Shown here piece by piece: positions 7,456 through 25,277 of a stretch of DNA of 25,277 nt. The notes under the pieces are model-generated. The model ran no database searches. It was not told the DNA's origin and saw only the letters and a program-made list of their open reading frames with translations. The stretch is taken from positions 1 through 25,277 of IMG/VR virus record IMGVR_UViG_3300046028_000321, one strand, 5' to 3'. The position numbers and the translations under genes are program-made. How positions within the stretch are numbered: position 1 is the first letter of the stretch; each line of letters opens with the position of its first letter. The DNA comes from a virus.

Positions 7456-9510
7456 TCAAAACTGCTCTTTTGGCTCATCTTTGAACACAACCCAAACGTA
7501 ATCCTTGAAGATTTCCACTCCATTTGCGTACAGAAATTCGCGTTTATGGCGGCTAAATTCGTTCGATATTTGCTTGGGTGTCTTACCATGACCCCAGACT
7601 TGGGTGAACTTTTCAAGCCAATAATCGATCTTTACGGCCTTGTTTCTCTTACCGTCAAGGTCCCGCATCTCGCCAAATTCCTTAATCGCCTTGTGCAAAG
7701 AGTCAAGACAGATTTGCTGGTTCTTACCAACACCTGACCTGCTTGGCGGTTTTTTCTCCTTCTTTTCCGTGTCCGCCATGACCCTTGTTGCCTCATCCGA
7801 AGGGTTAACGGCAAGGCTGATGACGGGTTCCAATCCCAAACTGGACGCTGATAACTGCACCTCAACCATCTCGAATCCGATCTTGATGTTGTCCGCGCCG
7901 TCCTTTTGCTTGCTGATGGTGAGCAGTCCCGAACCGGCAATACCGTCACGCTTACCGCCCTCCATCCTTAAGAGTTCCAGTTGCGTGTCCACGGCTCCAA
8001 GTAGGGAAGAGTGACCGCGCAACCCTCTGGTGGCATCCTTTCCACTGTGGTGCAAGATCATGATGGTGCAGTCCAGCATCCTTTGGACTCGGCCAATGTT
8101 GGTGATGAACGCCCCCATGTCCTGTGAGTCGTTCTCGTTGCCGCCGCCGAAGGCTCTAGCCAAGGTATCTATTTGCAGCAGGCTGAACTCCACGCCCGTC
8201 TCGTTAATGAGTTGCTGGATGGACAACATGAGTAGGTTGAAGTCCTCTTCCGATGACCGCAAGTTGAGTTGGTGTCTGATGACGTAGATTTCTGCGCCCT
8301 GCTGGGTGTTGTTGTGGAGTTTGCAGGCCCTAATCCTTGCCCCGATACCGCCGTGTCCCTCTCCGCATATATATAGGACTGCGCCAGGAGTCTTGATCTC
8401 GTTACCCATCCACGTCCTGCCCGTAGCCACCGCCTCTGCAATGTCCAAGGCAATAAAGGACTTGTAACTGCCTGGTGGTCCGTACAGCGCGACAAAGGAC
8501 TTCTTAGGTATGACCTTCTCAATCAGCCACTCGACCGGCTCGTCCTGTATCGTGTCCCACGACTCGATGTTCAAGAACAAAGGCTTGGCCTTGGTTGACT
8601 CCTCGTGCATAGGTGCGTTGGAGTCGTAGTCATCCTGTGATGTATTTTCGCTGTGCGAGTCGTACTGTTCGCTGTTCGTTGCGCTATCCGATTCCGTGAT
8701 GGCTGGGAGTTTCTTTGCGAGGTCCGCAAGTTCAGCCCTAGTGCCTCCCATCTTGACCCACTCATGCGCGTCATCGCCAGGGAACGGCAGGTCCAAGTCC
8801 AAGTACCTGATGGACTTGGCCACAGGCATCAGGTTCTTGATTACCTTCTTGGCGTACTCCTGTCCAGCCTTGTCGTTGTCGGGAACCACCACCACGTTCG
8901 CCCCTGCGAAGTATTGGGTAATCTCAGCAGGCCAATGCCCAGCCCCAGCGTGTGACGTTGTGGCTATGGCTCCTATTGATACCAGCGCGTCGGCTGCCTT
9001 CTCGCCTTCGACAAGGTAGATGGCTCTTCCTGCTGTCTTTGCGTCCAATAGTTCGGGGAATCTGTAAGGCACGATTCGGACATCGCCAAGGCGTGAGTGC
9101 CGCCTGCCGAGTGTGTCAACTCTGACCAGTCTGTAGTCCTTGCCCTTCTCCGTGTTCGTCTTGAACCTCTGCTTTATGAACAGGGTGTTCCTGTCCTCGT
9201 CCATGTACTCCCACTCCTGCTCCAACGTCATCGGCTGCGGAGCGAGCGTAGCGAGGCTGCTGAATATCTCCTCGCGTTTGGGTAGTTCCGGCAAAAGACC
9301 CCGATCCCTGATTGCGCCGAATACATCGTTCTGATCGCACCCGCCGTGGCAGTGGAATAAGTACTTGCCGTCCTGAGTCTCCGTGATGGATAGGCTTGGG
9401 TTCTTGTCCCCGTTGCCCTTACCGTGCGATTGGACTGGGCAAGATGCCAGCCACGATCCGTTTGCTTGCTTTGCGTTGCCTAGTGCCTGCGCTATTTGTT
9501 CGGCTTGCAT
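7456..9510 (-). CDS. Primase-helicase (zinc, Toprim and RepA/DnaB-like ATPase)
   Basis: The 684-residue protein joins a primase-like half to a helicase-like half. Near the N-terminus C24, H29, C54 and C58 form a zinc-binding site, with DKNPSLSI and FHCHGGC as in CHC2-type primases. A Toprim domain follows: LVEGEKAAD (166-174) carries the glutamate and VVPDNDKAG (208-216) the DxD. After an acidic linker (about 272-305) comes a RecA-fold ATPase like AAA_25/RepA proteins: Walker A YGPPGSYKS (343-351), Walker B LLQIDTLA (444-451) and the sensor-like ILHHSGK (485-491). It should make primers and unwind DNA at the phage fork. Start 9510 has ACGAGGTAG upstream and lies 19 bases inside the methyltransferase gene. 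A repeat array follows the stop. Confidence 0.9.
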   Translation of the reverse strand: MQAEQIAQALGNAKQANGSWLASCPVQSHGKGNGDKNPSLSITETQDGKYLFHCHGGCDQNDVFGAIRDRGLLPELPKREEIFSSLATLAPQPMTLEQEWEYMDEDRNTLFIKQRFKTNTEKGKDYRLVRVDTLGRRHSRLGDVRIVPYRFPELLDAKTAGRAIYLVEGEKAADALVSIGAIATTSHAGAGHWPAEITQYFAGANVVVVPDNDKAGQEYAKKVIKNLMPVAKSIRYLDLDLPFPGDDAHEWVKMGGTRAELADLAKKLPAITESDSATNSEQYDSHSENTSQDDYDSNAPMHEESTKAKPLFLNIESWDTIQDEPVEWLIEKVIPKKSFVALYGPPGSYKSFIALDIAEAVATGRTWMGNEIKTPGAVLYICGEGHGGIGARIRACKLHNNTQQGAEIYVIRHQLNLRSSEEDFNLLMLSIQQLINETGVEFSLLQIDTLARAFGGGNENDSQDMGAFITNIGRVQRMLDCTIMILHHSGKDATRGLRGHSSLLGAVDTQLELLRMEGGKRDGIAGSGLLTISKQKDGADNIKIGFEMVEVQLSASSLGLEPVISLAVNPSDEATRVMADTEKKEKKPPSRSGVGKNQQICLDSLHKAIKEFGEMRDLDGKRNKAVKIDYWLEKFTQVWGHGKTPKQISNEFSRHKREFLYANGVEIFKDYVWVVFKDEPKEQF

Positions 9511-10922
9511 AGTTGTTCTACCTCGTTTATTCTTTTACCGATCCACGCCATCACAGGCACAGCCATTGAGTTGCCCAAAGCCTTGTACCTCGGTCCATCA
9601 GGGGTTGCCTTGCCCTTTGACTTTATGTCCGTGTAAGTATCGGGGAAGCCCTGCAAGCGCTCACATTCCACAGGGGTCAAACGGCGTACTGCCATTGACT
9701 GTTGCATTGCAACGTGCATTTGGCTACCTTTTGCCAGTGTGCTAACAGGCAGTCCTGCTTCAACCCTTGTGCCATTAACTTTGCTTGTAATCTGCGCCAT
9801 GTCAAAACTAATCGGCTGCGCCACACCATGCACACCTGTGGCATTCAATGTGTACATTGGGCCGCCATCGGTAAACCCGTCACCGTTGCCACCATTCTCA
9901 GGCTTGCGCCCAATAGTGTTCTCGGCTAGGGCGATGGGCTGTATCGCCATATAACCACCCGCTGCATGGTCAATTGAGTTGCTAAAACCGCCCGATGTAT
10001 TGCGAGAAAGCATTGTCCCCGCTACGTCATGCGAGGCGATGGGCTGAACAACGTAAGGTGATTCATGGGTTGAATTTAATGCCAATCCAACATCAAGACT
10101 AAAAGCAGCATTGGCCTGACCACTTGTTACAAACAGAGGTGCTGGAACAAACATTGGGCAACCTGCATTGACGTGCTGATTTTCTAAACCTTGTTTTGTA
10201 CCAAAGGTGGTGTCTAAGGTGCTGCTGATTTCAGCCGGCCAAGTTGCCATCAAGTGACCTTGCGCCGCATCTTGAACGCTTATGCTTTGTCCTGTTCTTG
10301 CACAAAGGCTACCGACTGAAGGGCTTGCTCCAGTGCTGGCGGTAAAACTTTCCCTCTTTTCTCTGCTCGGCGCAGGATTCCCTTGCAAGCTGTCTCGCTC
10401 AAAAAGAACCGCTGCGGCACGCTGCCAGTCTCCAAGGTATCCGACAACGAACACACGTCTGCGTCTTTGGGCCACTCCGAAGTATTGAGCGTCAAGAACC
10501 CTGTATGCGAACCCATACCCGAGTTCGCCCAACCCTCGAAGGAAGGAGGCAAAGTCGTGTCCGCCGTTAGAGGATAAGACGCCAGGGACGTTCTCCCAAA
10601 CCAACCACTTGGGCCGATATTTGTCAGCAATGGCAAGATAGGTGAGCATGAGGTTGCCACGAGGGTCATCCAATCCCTTTCGGAGTCCGGCGACTGAGAA
10701 GGATTGGCAGGGAGTTCCTCCAACGAGAAGATCGACATTTGGTTCAATTGACCACTCCTTAAATTTTGTCATGTCACCCAAGTTGGGTGTGTTTGGGTAG
10801 TGATGTGCAAGCACCTCAGATGGGAATCTTTCAATCTCGGAGTAGGCTACTGCCTCCCATCCAAGTGGATGCCACGCTACTGTTGCCGCTTCTATGCCAC
10901 TGCAAAGTGATAGATATTTCAT
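9492..10922 (-). CDS. C5-cytosine DNA methyltransferase with long target-recognition insert
   Basis: The 476-residue protein carries the C5-methyltransferase motifs in order: I LSLCSGIEA (4-12, SAM binding), IV GGTPCQSFS with catalytic C72, VI WENVPG (about 109-114), VIII AQRRRRVF (151-158), IX RRLTPVECERLQGFP (413-427) and X GNSMAVPV (450-457). It methylates cytosine in duplex DNA; the target site cannot be read. Between VIII and IX lie about 255 residues, rich in Gly, Asn and Ser, with QPI(A/S) recurring at 293, 328 and 369, probably an expanded target-recognition region. In a phage it likely protects against restriction or marks phage DNA (inference). The start at 10922 lacks a Shine-Dalgarno and lies 18 bases past a terminator T run. 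A 152-codon ORF in another frame overlaps residues about 62-214. Confidence 0.93.
   Translation of the reverse strand: MKYLSLCSGIEAATVAWHPLGWEAVAYSEIERFPSEVLAHHYPNTPNLGDMTKFKEWSIEPNVDLLVGGTPCQSFSVAGLRKGLDDPRGNLMLTYLAIADKYRPKWLVWENVPGVLSSNGGHDFASFLRGLGELGYGFAYRVLDAQYFGVAQRRRRVFVVGYLGDWQRAAAVLFERDSLQGNPAPSREKRESFTASTGASPSVGSLCARTGQSISVQDAAQGHLMATWPAEISSTLDTTFGTKQGLENQHVNAGCPMFVPAPLFVTSGQANAAFSLDVGLALNSTHESPYVVQPIASHDVAGTMLSRNTSGGFSNSIDHAAGGYMAIQPIALAENTIGRKPENGGNGDGFTDGGPMYTLNATGVHGVAQPISFDMAQITSKVNGTRVEAGLPVSTLAKGSQMHVAMQQSMAVRRLTPVECERLQGFPDTYTDIKSKGKATPDGPRYKALGNSMAVPVMAWIGKRINEVEQLCKPNK
10280..10738 (-). CDS. Overlapping ORF inside the cytosine methyltransferase gene
   Basis: A 152-codon frame lies entirely inside the methyltransferase gene, on the same strand but another frame, over catalytic motifs IV to VIII. 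It starts MSIFSLEELPAN at the ATG at 10738 (a TTG at 10747 would add three residues). It contains GPSGWFGRTS, NSGMGSHTGFLTLNTSEWP, CSLSDTLETGSVPQRFFL and GILRRAEKRGK. From memory, free-standing phage proteins with NSGMG...TLNTSEWP and GILRRAEKRGK...LP exist in proteobacterial phages, which makes this more than a shadow frame. No good Shine-Dalgarno is visible (GGAG is about 20 bases away). It is either a real overprinted gene or a frame that merely mirrors the conserved methyltransferase codons. No function is known to me. Confidence 0.45.
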   Translation of the reverse strand: MSIFSLEELPANPSQSPDSERDWMTLVATSCSPILPLLTNIGPSGWFGRTSLASYPLTADTTLPPSFEGWANSGMGSHTGFLTLNTSEWPKDADVCSLSDTLETGSVPQRFFLSETACKGILRRAEKRGKVLPPALEQALQSVAFVQEQDKA

Positions 10923-12877: not shown

Positions 12878-13708
12878 TTAATCTCCACAAAAACATGAGA
12901 TGCCTTCTTCATTGGGGTCAAACATATCGCGTTGCTCTTTCGAGAATTGCAGCATTGACGCGTAACTTGGCCGGTCTTTGTTGAAAACAGCACCGCTTGG
13001 CTTGGACGCTAACGCTAACGCTTCCATTTTTGCCCACCAAACGGCACGTTCTGGCTTCTCTGCTATCAAACTGGCTATCTGTGACATCGGCTTTAGATAG
13101 CAAAGATCACAATTGCCATGCATGGTTACACCATTGAAGTTTGGAAGCCCGAGATCAAACGATTGTTTCTTCCAAAAGTCACCGACATCCTGCGCCCCGA
13201 TGCCGACACCGGCCAATGGAGCAGACTTGGTTTCGTGCTTACCGTAATCGTTGTTTGTAATTCTTGAGACACGGCGAGGTTCATCTGCACGAATCCCAAG
13301 CATTGAGTCCCACTCAGTCCAGCCAATGAACTTCAAGTAACGATGCATAGTTCTGACTTTGAGTTCGACTGTGCAAAATCTAGCAACTACATTTGGAAGA
13401 TATTGGCGTTTAAGAATTAACGCCTCAAATGGTTCACCGTCGCGGCTGGCACTATCAAAGTCCACCAATTCAAATTTTGATTCTGTGTCTCGGTACTCCA
13501 ACCAAGTAATTGGCACGTTCCAATTCACAGAACAATTTCTAATAAATTCCAGCGTCTCTTCGCATTCTTTTCCTGTGTTAGCAAAAATTACCTTTGCCTC
13601 TTCAGGCAACCCGCCATTGGCCTCCAATATCCTCCACAGCATATAGGCACTGGTTCTCCCACCGCTAAAACTAATGCAGGTAGGGCTGTCAATTTTGAAC
13701 GGATTCAC
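12878..13708 (-). CDS. PP-loop / PAPS reductase-like protein
   Basis: The 276-residue protein has a PP-loop SFSGGRTSAYML (13-24), then VIFANTGKECEETLEFI (about 40-56) and ARFCTVELKVRTMHRYL. These are the phosphoadenosine-phosphosulfate reductase-like pattern, in which the loop binds ATP or its adenylate. Towards the end are HGNCDLCYLKP (a CxxC) and the terminus ISCFCGD. These four cysteines could bind a metal or Fe-S cluster. Related phage proteins are common, but their substrate is mostly unknown; bacterial relatives activate sulfate, make thiolated tRNA, or act in DNA phosphorothioation (DndC). The start is GTG at 13708, overlapping the resolvase stop as GTGA. It sits between RuvC-like and nuclease genes, so a nucleic-acid role is plausible (inference). 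Confidence 0.8.
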   Translation of the reverse strand: MNPFKIDSPTCISFSGGRTSAYMLWRILEANGGLPEEAKVIFANTGKECEETLEFIRNCSVNWNVPITWLEYRDTESKFELVDFDSASRDGEPFEALILKRQYLPNVVARFCTVELKVRTMHRYLKFIGWTEWDSMLGIRADEPRRVSRITNNDYGKHETKSAPLAGVGIGAQDVGDFWKKQSFDLGLPNFNGVTMHGNCDLCYLKPMSQIASLIAEKPERAVWWAKMEALALASKPSGAVFNKDRPSYASMLQFSKEQRDMFDPNEEGISCFCGD

Positions 13709-16292: not shown

Positions 16293-16321
16293 AAATCCTA
16301 CACACAAAGAAGAACACATGA
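16289..16321 (+). CDS. Ten-codon minicistron MKILHTKKNT
   Basis: This ORF encodes only MKILHTKKNT. Its ATG shares bases with the stop of the preceding gene (ATGA) and is preceded by AGAGGAG at seven bases, a stronger Shine-Dalgarno than most genes here have. Its stop TGA shares bases with the ATG of the next gene. It may be a small peptide, or a relay that carries ribosomes to the zinc-ribbon gene. The frame could also be a chance product of the packed layout. Confidence 0.4.
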   Translation: MKILHTKKNT

Positions 16322-16431
16322 GCCAGTACAAGATATGCGCCAAGTGCTTGGAGTCCAAGCCGCATGATGGTGGGGTGGATATGTCACCCATCAGGTGGAT
16401 ATGCCAGCACTGTTGGCTGCTTAGAAAATGA
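16318..16431 (+). CDS. Zinc-ribbon-like mini protein, 37 aa
   Basis: The 37-residue product MSQYKICAKCLESKPHDGG... ends RWICQHCWLLRK. It has two CxxC knuckles (CAKC and CQHC) 18 residues apart, the layout of a treble-clef or zinc-ribbon fold. Such phage mini-proteins usually bind zinc and may contact DNA or RNA polymerase; which one is unknown. The start forms ATGA with the ten-codon ORF and has a weak GAAG in front. The stop forms ATGA with the winged-helix gene start. Two neighbouring genes encoding DNA-binding folds suggest a regulatory pair (inference). Confidence 0.7.
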   Translation: MSQYKICAKCLESKPHDGGVDMSPIRWICQHCWLLRK

Positions 16432-16793
16432 AGAGGCGAGACAGGGTGATCGAACTCATCACGGCCAAGGCCATGACATCTGTGGAACTGTCCAAGGTGA
16501 TCCACTGCGGACTGCGCGGGACTCAGATCATCATCACGAAGTTGCGCAAGGCAGGGCTGATACACATACAGGCGTACAGAAGGCAGAAGGCAGGCATTGC
16601 TGCGATGTGGCGTTATGGGATAGGGGTAGATGCCGTCAAGCCGCCGCCAGTGCCTTGCGCAGAAAGATCACGCAAGTGCCGTGATGGTCAGGGTGTCGAG
16701 GAACACGCCTTTGCTTTGGCCAGGCAACGTGCAAAGAAGTGGAAGATCAAACGCGACCCGTTGGTGGCCGCGTTCTTTGGGTCAGTAGAGTAG
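16428..16793 (+). CDS. Winged-helix phage regulator, 121 aa
   Basis: The 121-residue protein begins MKRRDRVIELITAKAMTSVE and has a winged helix (LSKVIHCGLRGTQIIITKLR, then KAGLIHIQAYRRQ) in the first 55 residues. This is followed by WRYGIGVDAVKPPP, a basic stretch, and RDPLVAAFFGSVE at the C-terminus. I recall phage proteins with the same G.GVDA.KP... and RDP.VAA.FG end in Burkholderiales phages, annotated as regulators. It should bind DNA. It is the last gene of the plus-strand operon, entered by an ATGA overlap. Its last 12 bases overlap the 3' end of the oppositely oriented virion gene, with no terminator visible between the two. Confidence 0.75.
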   Translation: MKRRDRVIELITAKAMTSVELSKVIHCGLRGTQIIITKLRKAGLIHIQAYRRQKAGIAAMWRYGIGVDAVKPPPVPCAERSRKCRDGQGVEEHAFALARQRAKKWKIKRDPLVAAFFGSVE

Positions 16794-18407
16794 CCCGTAA
16801 CTCTGCATCTGCTTGCGGAGTTCTTCTTCGTTCAAGTCTGCTGCCAACAAATCAGGTGCTGCCACACCCATTGTTGCGGCAATGGCTGCTGTCTTGCGGA
16901 ATGGGTCAAAGGCTGCAAAACGAGAGCGTAATTGTTCTGGCTCAAATGGAATTATTACGTCGTTGACTTGACCGCCACCCTTGCCGCTTTTATCAATTAT
17001 TCCGTTGTATCCAGCCTTCTTGAGAGCATTTGTAACTTTGTCTGGAATAGAGGTCCATACATAAGAATTTTCACCAGCACTAACATCTTTTGAAAGTTCA
17101 TCAATCCATTGCTTTGGCGTATATCTTGTATTTTTATCCCACTGATCTGCACCATACGCTTTAGTACGAGTTTTGTCGTTCTTGAACTGCTCTTTTAGGA
17201 ATGGAATTACTTTGTCTTGCAACTCAGAAACATTGCTTGTATCTAATGGATTTGAAATCATTGCTTTGCCAGTCATCACTCCTTTTGCAGATGCCCAAGG
17301 CGCATTTGTTTGGCTAATTTCATAAGGAAACCCAGCAAGTTTGTAAACTTCAGCAAGTTTGTCTTCGTTGCCGTATAACGTTCCAGACTCGCCCCATATC
17401 TTTCGCAATGCAGTTAATGGATTACCTTTTGATTCACGATTCAAATAATAGTTCCAAGTGTCCTCTGAAACGTTCATTGCATTAACGCCTTCAGGATGAA
17501 GTTTTAATGGCCCACTTGATTGGTCAAAGTCTTCAAAGCCAACTCGTTTAGCCCTGTCAAGTATTTGTGTTTTCTTTTCTTGTGGCAACCTATTCCACAA
17601 CTGCTCAACAGAATATGGAGAAGTACCACGCTCTCCCATAGACTTAGGAAATACTTGGAAATAATTTTGCATTTCTCCCATATCGCTTGCAATACGAGAT
17701 GTGTCTGCCTTATTCATTGAATAGTTAGAAGCAAGTGCTGGTTCATTTGTTCCAAATGGCATTGGCCCAGAAGTAGCCCTCTTTGCGTTGATGTTCTTAC
17801 CTTCAAGCAAACGATCTAATCGTTCTGTTCCATGAAGGTAATCAATTGCACCCATAGCCGCAGCGCGTTCTTCAGCAGTGTTATTTGCAAGTAAACCTAA
17901 TCCACCCTGATCTACTGGCAATGCAGCGCGTTGCTGCGCAATCTGTATTGCTTTATCTTGTGGGTATTTGAATTTAGTTGTTGGGGTGAGCAACCCACCA
18001 CCCTCAACTTGGACAATGCTTGGCATCATCCCCATGCGTTGCATATAGTTCTCTGCCAACTGGCCAGCCTTGGGAGCAACGAACTTTCCGACTGCTTTAG
18101 CACCTGAAACCGCCGGTGCTACCATCGGTAACGCTTGCAGTGCCAATCCCGCAGGGTAGCCGTAATCAGCACCCTGACGTACAGCAGCCGTATTAGGGTC
18201 AAGGATGCTGCCTTCCATTGAGTCAGGCTCCATTCCAAGAAGACCGCCCAACGCGCCATAAAGAGTTGGAAACTGCTCACGTAACGGGGACTGGCTTGGT
18301 CTTGCAACCATTTGCGTCAACTGCTCATCAACGCGGGGTGATGTTCCCTGCATCATCAGATTGCGCTTTTTGGTTTGAGCCATCAACAGTTCGTCAAGTA
18401 GTCCCAT
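16782..18407 (-). CDS. Internal virion protein with ADP-ribosyltransferase-like region
   Basis: The 541-residue protein is the last gene of the virion block. Residues 84-109 are hydrophobic (GYPAGLALQALPMVAPAVSG). From about 190 it resembles the ADP-ribosyltransferase fold found in phage polyvalent and ejected proteins: AIDYLHGTERLDRLL (187-201), SGPMPFGTNEPALASNYS (213-230), then AMISNPLDTSN (382-392), and the frequent end AGYNGIIDK followed by VIIPFEPEQLRSRFAAFDPF (about 466-503). The HGT and the NPLDT are typical; the usual catalytic glutamate cannot be placed with certainty. It may be ejected into the cell and modify a host protein (inference). Residues about 140-475 are encoded by clearly AT-richer DNA than the neighbours. 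Start 18407 has AAAAGG upstream. Confidence 0.65.
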   Translation of the reverse strand: MGLLDELLMAQTKKRNLMMQGTSPRVDEQLTQMVARPSQSPLREQFPTLYGALGGLLGMEPDSMEGSILDPNTAAVRQGADYGYPAGLALQALPMVAPAVSGAKAVGKFVAPKAGQLAENYMQRMGMMPSIVQVEGGGLLTPTTKFKYPQDKAIQIAQQRAALPVDQGGLGLLANNTAEERAAAMGAIDYLHGTERLDRLLEGKNINAKRATSGPMPFGTNEPALASNYSMNKADTSRIASDMGEMQNYFQVFPKSMGERGTSPYSVEQLWNRLPQEKKTQILDRAKRVGFEDFDQSSGPLKLHPEGVNAMNVSEDTWNYYLNRESKGNPLTALRKIWGESGTLYGNEDKLAEVYKLAGFPYEISQTNAPWASAKGVMTGKAMISNPLDTSNVSELQDKVIPFLKEQFKNDKTRTKAYGADQWDKNTRYTPKQWIDELSKDVSAGENSYVWTSIPDKVTNALKKAGYNGIIDKSGKGGGQVNDVIIPFEPEQLRSRFAAFDPFRKTAAIAATMGVAAPDLLAADLNEEELRKQMQSYGLLY

Positions 18408-18418
18408 ATCTGTACCTT

Positions 18419-20368
18419 TTACTTTTGTTGTGTTGGCTGAAGGCGGCCTGCACCGATCTGAGTGACTGCCCCAGGTGCGCCGACCGCTACCTTGTAGGAT
18501 AAACGCTTAATGGCGTCCTGCAACGCAGCCATCGCGCTCTCATCAACCAAAGCATTGCGGACAACTTGAGGGTTTTGAGATACGAGAATTCTTGCGATTT
18601 GATCTGACTGCGCATCTGTCAAGTTGCCGGTGTTCTGTCCCACCAACTTGCGCAGGACTCGGTATCCCGACATGACGTTACCGCTAAGTGCGCTTGTGAC
18701 CTCTTCGGGAGAGATGTTCATCCCGATGCGCTGACCTTGTTGCAGGCTTGCTGCCGTAGGAGAGCCGCCAAGAATGCCGGTGGCAGCACGTTGAGAGCCG
18801 GCTGCCACATTGACAGAGCCAAGCAAATTGTCCAACTGATCTTGAGGGAATACATTGCGCAGAATCTGACCCTCTTTAAGGTTCTCATCGGCAAACCGTC
18901 CCATCATGCTCTTGCGTGATCCTGTGGCCATCCGAGTGCGCGTTGCGTCCATCAGACCTGACCGATACGCCTGCTTTGCGGCAGGAGACATAGACTCAAA
19001 CTCTACAGCGACCTCGTCCGCGCTCTTAGTAAACGCCTTGCGTCCCTCTTGGAACGCGTCACGCGCAGACCGTGTCTGTGCAGCCGTTTGTCTAGCACCA
19101 GCCAACGCCTTGGATGACTGGTCAAGGGAGTTGCGCAACTGCAACTCAACGTCCTTGAGTGCAGTTCCAACGCCGCCAGCACCTTGGGAGAACGCCTTGT
19201 TTGCCTCGTCCTGAATACCGCGACGGACAATTTCCATATCCTCAAGGTTTGGGGTACGACTGTACTCAATGTTCCCGTCCTTGAACGTGAAGAACGGAGC
19301 CTTGCCTGTTGTGGCTCTGTACAGTTGATTGATGTTGTTTGCTGCCTGTGGAGCGCGTTGCAGGGCCGCTGAGAAGGCATCAAGCATTGGCTTGTCAACT
19401 ACGCCGCCCTGCTCAAACGCGGCTGTGTACATGGCGTTCTCTGCAACCTTAATGTCTGCCTCGTCCATCTTGTACTGGCGCAAGATATTCTTGTCGCCTG
19501 TAGGAGACAGCCCAGCGCGCATCTGCTTCATAGCCTCATCACGCATGATGTTGGGACGCGTAGTGAGTGCCTTGCCTATGGTGGCTGACGCAGGACCGCC
19601 TTGGGTGTACATCGCACGTACCATTGACTGCAAGGTGGCGTTCTCTGCCATGATCTCGCCCTTGGCAACCCTGTCCACGATCTCGTCAGTGGTAAGTCCT
19701 GACTCTGTGGCCAGCCGCTGAATCTCTGTCTCTACGGCCTTCGCGCCACGGCCACCAATGGTGCGCCTTGTAAAGTCAATCAGTTTATTGGCCACTGCAC
19801 TACCGCCAGTGAGAAGCGTAGTCCCGACTGGGCCGGCAACTGTTCCAACAGCCATGCCAGGAACAACACGCCCTGACCTTTCAAAGAAGTCACCCTCACC
19901 AGTTGCAAACCCAGTCAGTCCACCCTGCAAGGCTCCAACGCCAGCGGCGCGAGCCAATAACGCAGGGAGTGCGACTGGGGCAGCAGCACCACCCGTTAAG
20001 GTTGTGGCTGCGATTGCAGGCAATATTGCACCGCCAGCCTCATACGCAAGTGCCTCGTATGGGCTATCTTTCCTGTAAGCCTCTAACTTTGATCTGATGT
20101 CTGCAACTGCCGCGTCGTAAGGTACACCGGCCAGCGACTGAAGGTATGCCTCCAACTCGTCGGAACTGCCAAAGGTAATACCCTGCGCAAGAGATCGCAG
20201 TCTCTGACTTGGAGTCTCACCTTGAGGTGCTTGTGGTGCTGGTGCGAGCGCGGCCTGCACTGCCTGTAGTTTTGGCAGCGGGATGGCGTTGTTGTTCCCC
20301 GCCTTGAGTGCTTGCAACTCCTCGACGGTGAAGGTATCAAGAACCTGTTGCAGATCAGTTTGTGCCAT
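18419..20368 (-). CDS. Large internal/ejection-type virion protein
   Basis: The 649-residue protein begins MAQTDLQQVLDTFTVEELQA, then has a Pro/Gln-rich linker and SQRLRSLAQGITFGSSDELE. A long Gly/Ala-rich hydrophobic part (about 112-200, including GGAILPAIAATTLTGGAAAP) follows, and the rest is helical with little sequence identity to known enzymes. The layout matches phage internal proteins that leave the capsid with the DNA and cross the cell envelope, as in P22 gp16/gp20 type proteins; similarity is in layout, not in recognised motifs. Its start codon shares one base with the previous stop (TAATG) and GGAAGAC lies about 13 bases upstream. It is followed at 11 bp by the ART-like gene. Cis-acting enzyme motifs such as a lytic transglycosylase glutamate were not seen. 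Confidence 0.65.
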   Translation of the reverse strand: MAQTDLQQVLDTFTVEELQALKAGNNNAIPLPKLQAVQAALAPAPQAPQGETPSQRLRSLAQGITFGSSDELEAYLQSLAGVPYDAAVADIRSKLEAYRKDSPYEALAYEAGGAILPAIAATTLTGGAAAPVALPALLARAAGVGALQGGLTGFATGEGDFFERSGRVVPGMAVGTVAGPVGTTLLTGGSAVANKLIDFTRRTIGGRGAKAVETEIQRLATESGLTTDEIVDRVAKGEIMAENATLQSMVRAMYTQGGPASATIGKALTTRPNIMRDEAMKQMRAGLSPTGDKNILRQYKMDEADIKVAENAMYTAAFEQGGVVDKPMLDAFSAALQRAPQAANNINQLYRATTGKAPFFTFKDGNIEYSRTPNLEDMEIVRRGIQDEANKAFSQGAGGVGTALKDVELQLRNSLDQSSKALAGARQTAAQTRSARDAFQEGRKAFTKSADEVAVEFESMSPAAKQAYRSGLMDATRTRMATGSRKSMMGRFADENLKEGQILRNVFPQDQLDNLLGSVNVAAGSQRAATGILGGSPTAASLQQGQRIGMNISPEEVTSALSGNVMSGYRVLRKLVGQNTGNLTDAQSDQIARILVSQNPQVVRNALVDESAMAALQDAIKRLSYKVAVGAPGAVTQIGAGRLQPTQQK

Positions 20369-21795
20369 TATCTTGTCTTCCGTTTGATTGCTTCGTCGAT
20401 AGCATTATTCACTCGAAGGTTCCCACTAAGGTCAGTCTGCGAGGTGTACGGAATCACCTGATACATTACTCCAACATCGCTAAAGCCAGGAACCTTCATG
20501 GCAGTTGCGTAAGTATCTTGGTGTTCTTTTATGCGCTGGTTAGCAAGTTTTTGCATAGCCGCCATACCAGTACGCAACTCAGCCGCTGTCATTGTCTGAT
20601 CTCCGGCTGCTGTACGTTTTATCAAGGAACGCTCATTTTCAGTAATAGCACCCTGACCTCTCATTGAAGCCGCAGCAGCAAGTTCAGACTGTGCAAGACC
20701 CTGAACTACTTGACGTGTGTCTTGCAGAGTCTTCTCAGCATCAGGTCCGGCAATATTTAACTGCTTGGCAACACGTAGCATTGAAGTTCTGTAATCAGCG
20801 GCTGGTCCAAGAACTGCGGTATCAAGAGCAGGGGCAATCATGTCAATATTTCGCAAAGTATCGTTAGCACCTTTTGCTGCAAAAAGAGTACCTTTTAGAA
20901 TTTCAATTGCACCAGTTCCACCGGCTGTAGCCATGCTGTTTGGTCCAGGTGGTAACTTGACTACAGTGTTAGGGGCAATTTGAGAACGATACTGTCCTAA
21001 TGCCGCTGTACCCTCTGCCCCAGTTCCACCAAGTGGACGGCCTAGTAAGTATTCAACTGCGCGAATGTCAGATGACTGAGCCTCATAAGGTTGCGCGTCA
21101 CTAACAATTCTGCGCTGTCCTTGCTTGTTGTACTGGACAACAACAGGCTTATTTCCAATCATTAGGTTCTGTGGTGCGCCATACTCTTGCGACGCACTGA
21201 CTGCATCAAGCATTGATTTTGAAAGTTGATCCGCTGGAAGGAGAGACATCAACGCTCTTTGCTCCTGGCTTAAATTTGCGAATGCACCGCTTCGTTGTGG
21301 TTGCTGCATAGATTGAACCTGTGCCGGTGTTGGAAGTTGTCCAATCATATTGGCACGATACACTGTAGGACCAGCAGGCATATTAGGTAGTGCAAGTGAC
21401 TGTTCAGGCGTGATGGCAACACCGGCAGTTGGCATTGAGGCGACTGGCATCTCTTGGCTATAGTCACCCATAAGCATTTTCTGCATACCTGAAAGCAAAT
21501 CCCTTGAACGCTTGGCCTCATCCAACTTCTGCTTGGTCATGATGTTGGCAATGGCTCCTGTCTGAGCCTGCTGATAACCTTGCTGACCAGCACCATAAGC
21601 CTCGCCCAAAGCCTGGCCAAGTCCGATTGGGACTGCGCTTGGACCTGAAGACTTGAGCAGGGACGCGGCCAACGCCATGATTCCCTGATTGTTCATTCTT
21701 GCGCGTTGCTCTTCGGTGAGGTACTCCTCAAGCCCTGAGTCTCCACCGCCAAATAAATTGGAGCCAAGAAGACCGCCAAAATCAAATGCTGCCAT
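20368..21795 (-). CDS. Structural/internal virion protein, 475 aa
   Basis: The 475-residue protein starts MAAFDFGGLLGSNLFGGGDS. It has a Gly/Ala/Gln-rich first part (GLGQALGEAYGAGQQGYQQA), then helical segments including SELAAAASMRGQGAITENER and KLANQRIKEHQDTYATAMKV near the C-terminus. The SMRGQGAITENERSLIKR motif is frequent in phage proteins of this kind, recalled and not searched. It probably belongs to the internal or ejection set made with the two genes after it. The Shine-Dalgarno TTGAGGTGAATC overlaps the preceding gene's stop region. No enzyme domain, signal peptide or clear transmembrane helix was recognised. Confidence 0.6.
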   Translation of the reverse strand: MAAFDFGGLLGSNLFGGGDSGLEEYLTEEQRARMNNQGIMALAASLLKSSGPSAVPIGLGQALGEAYGAGQQGYQQAQTGAIANIMTKQKLDEAKRSRDLLSGMQKMLMGDYSQEMPVASMPTAGVAITPEQSLALPNMPAGPTVYRANMIGQLPTPAQVQSMQQPQRSGAFANLSQEQRALMSLLPADQLSKSMLDAVSASQEYGAPQNLMIGNKPVVVQYNKQGQRRIVSDAQPYEAQSSDIRAVEYLLGRPLGGTGAEGTAALGQYRSQIAPNTVVKLPPGPNSMATAGGTGAIEILKGTLFAAKGANDTLRNIDMIAPALDTAVLGPAADYRTSMLRVAKQLNIAGPDAEKTLQDTRQVVQGLAQSELAAAASMRGQGAITENERSLIKRTAAGDQTMTAAELRTGMAAMQKLANQRIKEHQDTYATAMKVPGFSDVGVMYQVIPYTSQTDLSGNLRVNNAIDEAIKRKTR

Positions 21796-21803
21796 GATTC
21801 ACC

Positions 21804-22553
21804 TCAACCTAAAAGACCAAGAAGACCGCCGATGCCAGCACCAATACCAGTGCCAAGGCCAGGAATTACGGAACCTAGTTGCGCTCCGTACAACGCGCCA
21901 CCTAAAGCACCCGCACCCACATTACGTGAGTAAGGTGTAGTGGTAGACATACCAAGGTTCGGGATGTTGCCGCCAAGTGCTGCGGTAGTCACTCCCAACT
22001 TCTCTGTGCCGATGTTGCGCAGTGCGTCCAACTGACTCTGTAGCAACTGCTGACGCGCACCGCCCAAGGCCATCACGTTCTGACCGCCTTGGATGTTCTG
22101 CGCTCTAGCGTACTGAGCCAAGTTTGCTGCCTGTCCGTAACCCTGCTGACGCATATTCGCTGAGAGGTCAGCGGCCTGCTTGAGTGCTGCGGCGTTAGTA
22201 AGAGCAGCCTGCACACCTTGACGTGAACCGCCAAACGCCTTCGCGCCTGTGGCAGCCTGGCGATCTCTGAGGTCAGCCATCTGACGGCTTGTCTCAACGT
22301 CGCCCAGGCTGCGGTTGATTACGTCCTCTTGGTACGGGTTCATGAAGGCGTTGATGTCCTGCCCACTGAACGGGGTCAGGGACTGGTTAACTACCTGCTC
22401 CTCACCCGCCATGTACATTGGGTTGAAGTCAGCAAACTGCCGCACTGGGAGCGCGGTAGCGACTGACTTTGCCTGACCCAAGTTCTCAAGGTACGCAGCC
22501 TTTAACTGCGGGTCGATGGCTTGGGTTGATGTTGTGGAACCGCCTTTTGACAT
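21804..22553 (-). CDS. Internal virion protein with glycine-zipper C-terminus
   Basis: The 249-residue protein starts MSKGGSTTSTQAIDPQLKAA. Its middle is Gln/Ala-rich helix (RDRQAATGAKAFGGSRQGVQ; ADLSANMRQQGYGQAANLAQ), and the last 40 residues are a glycine-zipper-like hydrophobic stretch (GALGGALYGAQLGSVIPGLG, then GIGAGIGGLLGLLG). Such tails insert into membranes, which fits a DNA-transfer protein that leaves the capsid during infection; this role is inferred from layout and position. The ATG at 22553 has a strong AGGAG eight bases upstream, made partly from the preceding stop codon. The next gene starts 9 bp past its stop. Confidence 0.65.
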   Translation of the reverse strand: MSKGGSTTSTQAIDPQLKAAYLENLGQAKSVATALPVRQFADFNPMYMAGEEQVVNQSLTPFSGQDINAFMNPYQEDVINRSLGDVETSRQMADLRDRQAATGAKAFGGSRQGVQAALTNAAALKQAADLSANMRQQGYGQAANLAQYARAQNIQGGQNVMALGGARQQLLQSQLDALRNIGTEKLGVTTAALGGNIPNLGMSTTTPYSRNVGAGALGGALYGAQLGSVIPGLGTGIGAGIGGLLGLLG

Positions 22554-22564
22554 ATTCGTATCTC

Positions 22565-23551
22565 CTATGCTTCGAGCAAACCGCGAAGTTTGCCCTTTGA
22601 AATCTTGCCTGCGTTGATGGCGTTCATCAACTCGATGCCGTACTTACCAACGGACTTGGCGTTGATGACGTACTCTCCGTCATCCAGTCCACCGTATCCG
22701 TCATCTGGACCCATTGGGTTTGGACCACGTAGCCGATTCATTGTGACTTGGCCACCTTTGTTAAACATACTGCCGTCAATGCCGCCGTCTGATGTCATGC
22801 CATAGCCACTATCTCCAGTAGCGGCTGGCCCTAGTCCAAAGCCTTCTGCTTCAGCCGCATCAGCAATTGCCGCATCTGATGCGGCTTGAGCAGCGGCATC
22901 AGCAGCGGCAGCAGCGGCTTGCTGTCCTTGTGCTGTTGCTGGGTCAATACCCATTGGGTTTGCTGCAATGCCTGCACCTGTCATTCCTGTAACGCCGTAC
23001 CCGCCTTGGCTTTCGGGGGTTCCGTATCCACCACCACCAAAAGTTGATGCAGCACTTGGTGGCGCACCAAACATAGTTCCAGACGTATATCCCGCTATTG
23101 CATCACTCAGGGCTTGCGATGATAATTTTCCAGCCTGTTCTATTTGTCCTGGATTCATAGATTGCGCTATTGTTTGCGCAACCAATCCAAACGGCAACAT
23201 CCCGCCAAGAGCATTTCCGTAAGCATCTAAAAAACCGTATAAACCGCTACCTGTCATCGGGTTAGATAATGGGCTTACATTTGGGCTGTAACCGTCGCCA
23301 GTTGCATAGTCGCCACTTCCACGATCACCGGCAGGAAAACGATTTGGATTATTTAACGCCTGTAGGCGAAGAATCTCATCGTAATTACTTGATGGGCCAG
23401 AATACGCAGAGGTCGGCGTATATGCGTTAAAGCCTCCAGTGTAGGAAGACCCTGGGTTCATAGACTGACGCAGACGCATCAACTCCATGATCTGTGCGTA
23501 TTTGTTGCTGCCAGCAACTGGGCTTTGTGTTTGACCGCCACCTAGACTCAT
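22565..23551 (-). CDS. Gly/Ala-rich virion protein, 328 aa
   Basis: The 328-residue protein has a low-complexity Gly/Ser/Tyr-rich body, an alanine tract (about residues 209-235, QQAAAAAADAAAQAASDAA) and an ordered C-terminus: GYGGLDDGEYVINAKSVGKY then a basic helix ending GKLRGLLEA. The L.DGEYVI.A..V pattern is common in phage structural proteins. The frame is open to 23578, but the ATG at 23551 has AAGGAATTGAT in front and forms ATGA with the stop of the GNAT-like gene, so it is chosen. The low complexity fits a flexible internal or tail-associated protein; nothing points to an enzyme. Function unknown. Confidence 0.6.
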   Translation of the reverse strand: MSLGGGQTQSPVAGSNKYAQIMELMRLRQSMNPGSSYTGGFNAYTPTSAYSGPSSNYDEILRLQALNNPNRFPAGDRGSGDYATGDGYSPNVSPLSNPMTGSGLYGFLDAYGNALGGMLPFGLVAQTIAQSMNPGQIEQAGKLSSQALSDAIAGYTSGTMFGAPPSAASTFGGGGYGTPESQGGYGVTGMTGAGIAANPMGIDPATAQGQQAAAAAADAAAQAASDAAIADAAEAEGFGLGPAATGDSGYGMTSDGGIDGSMFNKGGQVTMNRLRGPNPMGPDDGYGGLDDGEYVINAKSVGKYGIELMNAINAGKISKGKLRGLLEA

Positions 23552-23910
23552 ATCAATTCCTTGCTCAAAATGAACCACTTAGGTTCGTAACCCTCATCCT
23601 TTAAGAACGTCTTCTGCCAACCCTGACGGCCAGCAAGAGATACTCGACTGCAACCCAACTGCTTGCCCCAAGACTCGATGTATGGTCGCATCTGCTTGAG
23701 TTCATCTAGGTCGCCGCCAGCAAGGAAGAAGTGCAAGTCCTTGATTCGCGGGTAGACAATGATCTCAGTAACCACCGCGGATTTAGTGCCAGGCCAGAAC
23801 TGAAATCTGTTACTGGCCACACCCTCCGCAATGTCCTCAATAGTGTGTGTCCCTCCTGAGTATTCTAAAGCCGCTTCGATGTGTTTGCGCAGCGACCAAA
23901 ACTCCTCCAT
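23548..23910 (-). CDS. GNAT-like small phage protein, 120 aa
   Basis: The 120-residue protein starts MEEFWSLRKHIEAALEYSGG. It contains SAVVTEIIVYPRIKDLHFFL, AGGDLDELKQMRPYIESWG and CSRVSLAGRQGWQKTFLKDE. The strand-strand-helix-strand order and the LAGRQGW...L end resemble a trimmed acetyltransferase fold as seen in small phage proteins beside tail genes, recalled from memory. A full acetyl-CoA loop (Q/RxxGxG/A) is not obvious, so catalytic activity is doubtful. The start at 23910 shares its A with the stop of the gp10-like gene (TGATG), with CAGGGA upstream. It probably assists tail assembly or modifies a structural protein (inference). Confidence 0.65.
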   Translation of the reverse strand: MEEFWSLRKHIEAALEYSGGTHTIEDIAEGVASNRFQFWPGTKSAVVTEIIVYPRIKDLHFFLAGGDLDELKQMRPYIESWGKQLGCSRVSLAGRQGWQKTFLKDEGYEPKWFILSKELI

Positions 23911-25277
23911 CAGCGTTTCCCTGCGGTTGTCGTCTCCAGCCGCATCACCCCAACGCGCCAGTCGTCTAGCACGTTGCCTGTAACCTTCATCTTGACGGAC
24001 CGGCCTGAGAACCTAGCATCGGTAGGAGCCTTGGCCGAGAACGGTCCATAGGTAGACTCAGCCGATGTCGGGTACAGCCTTGCCGTGAAGGAGATGGCAA
24101 CCTCGCCCAGTGTCTGCTCGTCGGGGATAACCGACCTGACGGACATGATGTTCTCGCCTGTGCCGATCTCAATGGGTCCTGACTGGGCGTAGACAGAGCC
24201 GCCGTCATAGCCAAAGCCTACCTCATGCTCATAAATGTAGGAATCTGCGCTGACCATCAAGGGGTTGCTGAACACACCCCTGTCAGTGCCAGCCGTGCGG
24301 GACATGGTTCCAATAGCCCAGTGACCCTCACGGTAGTTGTAGGTTACATAGGAATCATTCTCATTTGATGCACTTGATGGGTAGAACCATGTGATCTCGC
24401 CAAACGAAGAGTTGTGTACGGCGTAGACCTTTGAGGCTTGGTTGTAGTTGATGTTGTTGAAGACGTAGTCGGACACTTCGCAGTTCATTGGCTTGACGTA
24501 GCCGTCGTACTGCCAGAACCCTGACTTGGACATCCACATTGCGGAGGTGTCAATGGCCGCTATTGCCTGCGAAGAGATCACCCCGCAGCCCGAGCCGGCC
24601 TTCTCAAACGAGTACACGAATGGCAGACCGATGTAGGTGGCTGTATGAACGTCAACGTCTGTAAACAATAAGTTTACACCTCGGACTCGTTTACCTGCCT
24701 TCAGTGATCCAACTGTGGCTAGTTCAAAGTCTCCAGCCTGATTATTTGACGCGGCAGTCCATACTGTGTTGTTCTCTTGGTCACACCAAGACACTAGACG
24801 GTTATTTCCACCGGCTCCCAACGCGAAGATGATTCGCTCAGAAGTCACCAACAGGGCAGCGCAGCCCGTCGGTGCGTTGGTGATTACAGCCGCCTTTGTT
24901 GGGGTAGTAAAGCCCAACTGCCACTCGTAGAGTTTGCCGTCCGTGTCGCTACACGCCACAAGGTACTCGCCAAAGGTGTCAAGGCTCCACGTCGTGGCAG
25001 GGGCCACCGTCCCAATATCAGGACGCGCAACGCCATAAGAGAACGATCCGTAGGTGTTATAGCCGTAGCCCGTTCCGCTGACTGCGTCTGCTCGGCCCGA
25101 AGTGAAACCCGTTGGGGTAATGTCCTTGACAACGGAGTTCTCGTCCATCGCAAAGAGTTTTGAATGAGTGCCTGCGGCAACAAAACGTCCACCGCTGTTG
25201 CCTCTCCATGCTATCAATCCACGGCATTTACCCGTGAGTTGCGTCTCCGACTTCTTACGCCACCCGCCAATGGGTCG
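23910..25277 (-). CDS. P22 gp10-like tail stabilisation protein (5' end beyond window)
   Basis: The frame is open to the right edge, giving at least 455 residues: the first visible codons read RPIGGWRKKSETQLTGKCRG, which continues into LIAWRGNSGGRFVAAGTHSK, so a TTG at 25217 is an internal codon and not the start. The protein is rich in short beta strands, with repeated W/Y/G motifs (TWSLDTFGEYLVACSDTDGK, LYEWQ; SGFWQYDGYVK; HWAIGTMSRTAG), as in the beta-propeller-like head-completion proteins of P22 gp10 type. These close the portal channel and connect head to tail. The family assignment rests on the GG....TQLTGKCRG...W...G.R..A.GTHSKL opening, which I recall from that family. Its stop overlaps the GNAT-like gene start. 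Confidence 0.8.
   Translation of the reverse strand, partial: RPIGGWRKKSETQLTGKCRGLIAWRGNSGGRFVAAGTHSKLFAMDENSVVKDITPTGFTSGRADAVSGTGYGYNTYGSFSYGVARPDIGTVAPATTWSLDTFGEYLVACSDTDGKLYEWQLGFTTPTKAAVITNAPTGCAALLVTSERIIFALGAGGNNRLVSWCDQENNTVWTAASNNQAGDFELATVGSLKAGKRVRGVNLLFTDVDVHTATYIGLPFVYSFEKAGSGCGVISSQAIAAIDTSAMWMSKSGFWQYDGYVKPMNCEVSDYVFNNINYNQASKVYAVHNSSFGEITWFYPSSASNENDSYVTYNYREGHWAIGTMSRTAGTDRGVFSNPLMVSADSYIYEHEVGFGYDGGSVYAQSGPIEIGTGENIMSVRSVIPDEQTLGEVAISFTARLYPTSAESTYGPFSAKAPTDARFSGRSVKMKVTGNVLDDWRVGVMRLETTTAGKR

What the first reader, a model, noticed from the sequence alone, without database searches (positions are those of the whole stretch)
16782..18407. ADP-ribosyltransferase-like region in an internal virion protein: possible injected effector
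Seen: HGT, SGPMPFGTNEPALASNYS, NPLDT and the end VIIPFEPEQLRSRFAAFDPF in the order found in polyvalent-protein ART domains, placed in the last gene of an ejection-protein block. Known: several phages inject ARTs that modify host RNA polymerase or other targets. Inference: this protein travels with the DNA and modifies a host protein at once after entry. The catalytic glutamate was not placed.
Basis: partly seen in the sequence, partly recalled or inferred. Interest (0 to 1): 0.65.

Follow-up and report, generated by a model that had tools for sequence, protein, structure and literature searches.

The report
Swappable injected ADP-ribosyltransferase of short-tailed phage
The last gene of this phage's DNA-injection block encodes a divergent ADP-ribosyltransferase-fold protein, and in near-identical phages the same position holds completely different proteins, so it looks like an interchangeable cargo slot for proteins injected into the bacterium with the viral DNA.

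Summary
The gene is real: 541 codons on the MINUS strand (18407..16782), last of a P22-type ejection block. All quoted motifs are present, in the stated order. Residues 145-503 form a conserved domain found in at least 118 viral-contig loci and under strong purifying selection. A predicted model (pLDDT 83) best matches ADP-ribosyltransferase (ART) folds: a cyanophage pre-ejectosome domain, AcrIF11, PARP3, PARP14, cholix, exotoxin A. A bridging phage protein links it by sequence to Pfam ART-PolyVal. His192, Phe/Tyr218, Tyr229 and Asp472 are kept in every member examined. The PARP-type catalytic Glu is absent (Val in 54/54). The site resembles the H-Y-D of polyvalent ARTs, as H-[F/Y]-D. The ART call is right; the glutamate looked for does not exist.

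The larger finding lies around the gene. In phages 84-95% identical on both sides, this position carries unrelated proteins. Twenty-four slot proteins combine 7 N-terminal modules with 9 C-terminal types; two share identical first 88 residues but different C-terminal domains. This is a polymorphic cargo slot behind the ejection genes. Packaging, injection, catalysis and target remain inferred. New variant of a known kind.

The parts
16782..18407 (-). whole gene, 541 aa: swappable cargo slot of the ejection block, here carrying an ART-fold protein
18084..18407 (-). N-terminal module (aa 1-108); exchanged independently of the C-terminal domain among relatives
18013..18093 (-). 81-bp island encoding most of KFVAPKAGQLAENYMQRMGMMPS, 93.8% identical in L009 whose flanking cargo DNA is unrelated; the L018 breakpoint (18005) lies just past it
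16899..17975 (-). ART-fold domain with its conserved leading helix (aa 145-503)
17826..17834 (-). His192-Gly193-Thr194, strand 1 (NAD-binding His); H and G 54/54
17754..17756 (-). Phe218 (Phe 31/42, Tyr 11/42): position of the strand-2 Tyr
17721..17723 (-). Tyr229, 54/54, in the helix after strand 2 (second nicotinamide-stacking Tyr by analogy with PARP; analogy from own knowledge)
17292..17705 (-). large mostly helical insert between strands 2 and 3 (aa 235-372)
16992..16994 (-). Asp472 of G-[YF]-[ND]-G-I-x-D, 54/54: proposed third active-site residue
16956..16958 (-). Val484, 54/54, at the position of the PARP catalytic Glu (no Glu here)
18419..20368 (-). 649 aa, gp16-like ejection protein (size and order; short similarity to an annotated DNA ejection protein, E 2e-4)
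20368..21795 (-). 475 aa, gp20-like by size and order
21804..22553 (-). 249 aa, gp7-like by size and order
23910..25217 (-). 435 aa, phage stabilization protein homologue (62% to MW202879)
16313..16781 (.). conserved right flank of the slot: 90-95% identical in phages with other cargo

Best explanation
The gene is the cargo position of a P22-type ejection operon. An exchangeable N-terminal module, probably the address for packaging or ejection, carries a swappable C-terminal effector. The effector here is a divergent ADP-ribosyltransferase of the polyvalent clade with an H-[F/Y]-D site (His192, Phe218, Asp472) instead of H-Y-E. Proposed working: the protein is made late with the virion proteins, packaged, ejected with the DNA, and in the cytoplasm transfers one ADP-ribose from NAD+ to a host target. 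A defence component or RNA polymerase is most likely; the rapid swapping favours anti-defence. Shown here by computation: fold, family, conserved residues, selection, location, cargo swapping. Inferred: packaging, injection, catalysis, target.
For: ART fold: of the 11 PDB entries aligned at Z>=2, nine are known ARTs (AcrIF11 6.6, PARP3 5.4, PARP14 4.6, cholix 4.1, ExoA 3.9) and the best (Z 7.9, rmsd 3.1, 131 residues) is residues 1418-1600 of the cyanophage A4 pre-ejectosome. A canonical ART-PolyVal occupying the equivalent slot in L165 matches the same A4 residues first (Z 10.0) and then ART toxins, with the same strand order. Viral library: polyvalent and ART-PolyVal-named proteins. Sequence bridge: a 680-aa protein of MW202573 has a domain that BLASTs to the family across the HGT (E 5e-16) and over the tail (E 3e-8) and matches PF18760 (E 2.4e-7). 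One family member hits PF18760 directly (E 9e-4). Core profiles: score 31.8 vs shuffled maximum 20.9, pairing Asp472 with the Asp of GIxYLD. Location and swapping. Selection. Precedent for packaged phage ARTs: PMC5512222, PMC9503650.
Against: No Pfam ART hit to this protein itself. Foldseek against PDB gives no E below 1, and the VIA Z values lie in the 'middling' band. The canonical Glu is absent and the strand-2 Tyr is Phe here, so catalysis could be weak or lost. No virion proteomics, no activity data, host unknown. No DNA or protein evidence shows injection.
Confidence: 0.62

Rival explanations
1. Structural ejection module: the ART-fold domain has lost catalysis and serves as a building block of the ejection apparatus, as may be the case for the related domain in the cyanophage A4 pre-ejectosome.
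For: Best structural match is a pre-ejectosome domain; the canonical Glu is absent; the gene lies in the ejection block.
Against: Slot content is replaced wholesale by unrelated proteins in otherwise near-identical phages, which an essential channel part would hardly allow. The domain also sits before terminase-portal genes and inside 875-1650 aa polyvalent proteins. H192, Y229 and D472 are invariant.
Confidence: 0.15
2. NAD+-consuming toxin (NAD glycohydrolase) rather than a transferase: injected to deplete NAD+ in host cells or to exclude other phages.
For: Fold compatible; ART-fold NAD(P) glycohydrolase effectors exist among polymorphic toxins (PMC13285283, listed).
Against: No immunity gene is recognisable next to the slot; the conserved large insert fits target recognition better (AcrIF11 analogy, PMC12421852).
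Confidence: 0.12
3. The gene is a late protein that is not packaged and acts on the host at the end of infection.
For: No direct evidence of packaging.
Against: It starts 11 nt after the gp16-like stop and the slot was filled in 18 of 18 relatives examined. Relatives cluster with ejection or terminase-portal genes, the context the literature takes as a sign of head packaging (PMC9503650).
Confidence: 0.1

Closest known systems
ART-PolyVal (Pfam PF18760), ARTs of phage polyvalent proteins (Iyer et al. 2017, PMC5512222)
   Same: H on strand 1, aromatic on strand 2, Asp at the end of 'GI..D'; same strand order; occurs beside it in the same polypeptides (L080, L088, L095) and in the equivalent slot of another phage (L165)
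   Different: below detection for this protein; Phe in 31/42 instead of Tyr; Val instead of the invariant Asn before the last strand; large helical insert; here a single recognised domain, not multidomain
AcrIF11, an anti-CRISPR ART (PDB 6KYF)
   Same: fold (Z 6.6); literature site H-F-H-D, so also Phe and Asp (PMC12421852); variable helical region between strands
   Different: small early protein of about 137 residues, no N-terminal module, not virion-borne; equivalence of its Asp115 with Asp472 could not be checked
Cyanophage A4 pre-ejectosome protein (PDB 9K3A chain B, residues 1418-1600)
   Same: best fold match for this domain and for canonical ART-PolyVal; part of the packaged ejection apparatus of a short-tailed phage
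   Different: fixed part of a very large ejection protein; its paper was not readable here
T4 Alt
   Same: proposed role: ART packaged and injected to modify host proteins
   Different: R-S-E clade, different active site, myovirus
MuF polymorphic toxins (PMC5576092)
   Same: constant N-terminal virion-related part joined to variable C-terminal effector
   Different: no MuF domain found; several N-modules, not one; sits behind podophage ejection genes

Membership tests
ADP-ribosyltransferase superfamily | split beta-barrel ART fold | tested here: met
   model pLDDT 83; VIA rows are ARTs; control with canonical ART-PolyVal. Moderate Z, so fold rather than function is claimed
ADP-ribosyltransferase superfamily | His (or Arg) on strand 1 | tested here: met
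   H192, 54/54, model residue 48 in strand 44-50
ADP-ribosyltransferase superfamily | catalytic Glu at the start of the late strand (H-Y-E / R-S-E) | tested here: not met
   V484 54/54; neighbour 483 variable. This feature defines subclades only; several accepted ARTs lack it
ADP-ribosyltransferase superfamily | NAD+ binding and transfer | not testable with these tools
   needs biochemistry
ART-PolyVal PF18760 (H-Y-D) | score above Pfam cut-off | tested here: not met
   no hit for this protein; one relative E 9e-4; bridge homologue 26.4 bits vs cut-off 31.2
ART-PolyVal PF18760 (H-Y-D) | H, strand-2 Tyr and Asp of GIxYLD | tested here: inconclusive
   H and D invariant, Tyr replaced by Phe in 31/42. 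That this Asp is the published strand-5 Asp is my assignment
Polyvalent protein | several disparate domains in one polypeptide | tested here: not met
   only one recognised domain plus an N-module here; met by relatives L080, L088, L046
P22-type ejection-block cargo | encoded in the ejection operon behind gp7/gp20/gp16-like genes | tested here: met
   gp7/gp20/gp16 identity rests on size and order plus one short match
P22-type ejection-block cargo | present in the virion and ejected | not testable with these tools
   needs proteomics
MuF polymorphic toxin | MuF domain at the N-terminus | tested here: not met
   no MuF match in Pfam or PHROGs
T4 Alt / VIP2 clade | R-S-E active site | tested here: not met
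   H192 instead of Arg, no Glu; no Pfam hit

The most novel reading that the evidence does not exclude
Short-tailed phages carry a dedicated, recombination-driven cargo slot directly behind the ejection genes: a small set of exchangeable N-terminal address modules joined to a large repertoire of C-terminal effectors delivered in the first minutes of infection. One of these effectors is an undescribed ART subfamily using H-[F/Y]-D with Val at the classical Glu position and a large target-reading insert, most likely acting against host defences.
Probability: 0.42. Interest if true: 0.78.

Novelty: new variant of a known kind. Interest (0 to 1): 0.62.

Why it matters
If right, comparing phages that differ only in this slot gives a natural experiment: same virion and same genome flanks, different injected protein. 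It would give a systematic way to mine unknown early-acting effectors (nine C-terminal types in 24 slot proteins seen here, most without any annotation) and to identify the N-terminal signal that sends a protein through a short-tailed phage's ejection channel. It also describes an ART subfamily without the classical glutamate that present profiles miss.

Tried and rejected
Direct Pfam, PHROGs and NCBIfam searches of the protein: no meaningful hit. Sequence searches of PDB with the protein and with profiles A2, A3 and A5: only chance matches. LptG (E 0.008) was rejected because profile searches and the structure do not support it. Bacterial genomes: 394 pattern matches, none a relative, so no prophage source was found. 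Plasmids and sequenced phages: none, apart from a 41-aa match that became the bridge protein. My first idea, PARP-like H-Y-E with a shifted Glu, was dropped: position 483 is variable and 484 is Val in every member. A first single-linkage N/C table may merge modules too freely; it was redone with stricter rules on slot proteins only. The A4 ejectosome paper was not held. AcrIF11's sequence could not be obtained, so its Asp115 could not be aligned with Asp472.

Full report
OBSERVATION. The window is one complete IMG/VR record of 25,277 bases. The ORF lies on the minus strand, 18407..16782, 541 aa.

FAMILY. The full protein finds 16 relatives in viral contigs, most of them over short parts only. 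An alignment of the C-terminal part brings at least 118 loci. None was found in 84,980 bacterial and archaeal species genomes. Over 54 distinct members, H192, G193, S213, G214, P215, Y229, D472, V484, Q492 and R494 never vary. Position 218 is Phe in 31 and Tyr in 11 of 42. Against L018, dN is 0.002 and dS 0.057; against more distant members dS is saturated while dN is about 0.2. The protein is therefore functional.

FOLD. AlphaFold2 with 42 sequences gave pLDDT 83 and pTM 0.67. Foldseek finds nothing significant in PDB; its best row is 6kyf, the anti-CRISPR AcrIF11, itself an ART. Realignment with VIA-align gives 11 rows at Z 2 or more: residues 1418-1600 of the cyanophage A4 pre-ejectosome (Z 7.9, rmsd 3.1, 131 residues), AcrIF11 (6.6), PARP3 (5.4), PARP14, cholix, exotoxin A, and a single unrelated row at the bottom. 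As a control I predicted a canonical ART-PolyVal, the protein that fills the equivalent slot in L165. Its best match is the same stretch of the A4 protein (Z 10.0), followed by diphtheria toxin CRM197, ParT, cholix and exotoxin A. Both models have the order: strand 1 with His, strand 2, helix, helical insert, strand 3, helices, 'GI..D' strand, loop, last two strands. The Z values are moderate, but nearly all rows agree on one superfamily.

SEQUENCE LINK TO KNOWN ARTs. One family member matches PF18760 (ART-PolyVal) at E 9e-4. A 680-aa protein of phage record MW202573 (annotated 'DNA repair protein') holds a domain that aligns with family members from the leading helix through HGT (47% over 89 aa, E 5e-16) and again over the tail (E 3e-8). 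The same domain matches PF18760 at E 2.4e-7, though below the curated cut-off, next to another ART above it. Profile-profile alignment of the cores scores 31.8 against at most 20.9 in 60 column shuffles, and pairs Asp472 with the invariant Asp of 'GIxYLD' in ART-PolyVal.

ACTIVE SITE. In PARPs the catalytic Glu opens the strand that aligns with VIIPF. Here that position (484) is Val in 54/54 and the residue before it is variable. The 20 ART-PolyVal sequences also lack a Glu there: they have an invariant Asn, with invariant His, Tyr and Asp. Iyer et al. describe polyvalent ARTs as H-Y-D (PMC5512222). AcrIF11 is described as H-F-H-D (PMC12421852). I therefore propose H192-F218-D472.

GENOMIC POSITION. 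Upstream, in order, lie a homologue of the P22-type stabilization protein (62% to MW202879), then 120, 337, 249, 475 and 649 aa genes, then this gene. P22 gp7, gp20 and gp16 have 229, 471 and 609 aa in the same order (PMC8954989). The 649-aa protein has a short match to an annotated DNA ejection protein (E 2e-4). An Sf6-type small terminase and a large terminase lie elsewhere in the window. In other phages the same domain sits just before terminase and portal genes, or between them, or inside proteins of 875-1650 aa that carry a canonical ART-PolyVal, a GNAT or a PcfJ domain.

CARGO SLOT. Contig L009 is 88.6% identical to the window over 18390-22807 and 94.8% over 16313-16808, but the DNA between is unrelated except for an 81-bp island at 18013-18093; its slot protein has 891 aa. 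Conversely L018 carries the same ART domain and right flank (97.8% over 16313-18005) with an unrelated N-terminus and only a 22% gp16-like neighbour; its breakpoint lies 8 bp past the island. Anchoring on the 649-aa and 475-aa genes gave more loci. In all 18 loci where it could be read the slot is filled; the start lies 9-14 nt after the gp16-like stop, apart from two loci (L175, L181) where the script took an upstream alternative start. Left and right flanks are 84-95% identical while the slot content differs completely. Under strict clustering, 24 slot proteins comprise 7 N-modules and 9 C-types in 16 combinations; L018 and L160 are 100% identical over residues 1-88 and then carry the ART or an unrelated domain. 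One cargo is a canonical ART-PolyVal (L165) and one has DUF7178 (L168); four others have no Pfam match above cut-off.

MECHANISM. Best-supported reading: late expression with the virion proteins, packaging and ejection directed by the N-module, then mono-ADP-ribosylation of a host target by the C-domain. Shown by computation: family, fold, conserved residues, selection, position and swapping. Inferred: packaging, injection, catalysis, target. Literature precedent: polyvalent proteins and T4 Alt (PMC5512222, PMC9503650). Fast exchange of cargo at a fixed position is what an arms race with host defences would produce; that is an argument, not a proof.

NOVELTY. ARTs in virion-borne phage proteins are predicted in the literature, so the kind is known. 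Undescribed in what I could search: this ART subfamily, which Pfam does not recognise in this protein, and the combinatorial cargo slot behind podophage ejection genes. Two literature searches for such a slot found nothing relevant, but the library lacks most subscription journals.

Noticed in passing
window 16428-16793 (+): Convergent 121-aa ORF overlapping the end of the ART gene by 12 bp; looks like a small winged-helix DNA-binding protein by eye, no Pfam hit. It lies in the conserved right flank of the slot.
   Followed up: partly
window 18013-18093: 81-bp island encoding KFVAPKAGQLAENYMQRMGMMPS recurs in slot proteins and in terminase-proximal proteins of other phages with unrelated sequence on both sides; possible recombination anchor or functional signal.
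   Followed up: partly
L107 8636-10675 (MW202573.1): 680-aa protein annotated 'DNA repair protein' matches ART-PolyVal at two places and has a third ART-like stretch by eye.
   Followed up: partly
L080 4173-9122: 1650-aa polyvalent protein, lying between terminase and portal genes in sister locus L083, with an ART-PolyVal, a second ART-like stretch by eye and the present ART domain.
   Followed up: partly
window 12878-13708 (-): PAPS reductase-like auxiliary gene.
   Followed up: no
window 9492-10922 (-): C5 cytosine DNA methyltransferase, Pfam match in two pieces.
   Followed up: no
window 22565-23578 (-): The 337-aa gene has a patchy similarity pattern: relatives with near-identical neighbours share only parts of it, so it may be a second variable position.
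   Followed up: no
L106 (MW202879.1) 21304-22818: Nearest sequenced record carries at its slot a 505-aa protein related (about 31%) to slot proteins of L180/L188, separated from the gp16-like gene by an extra 130-aa gene labelled 'high potential iron-sulfur protein'.
   Followed up: partly
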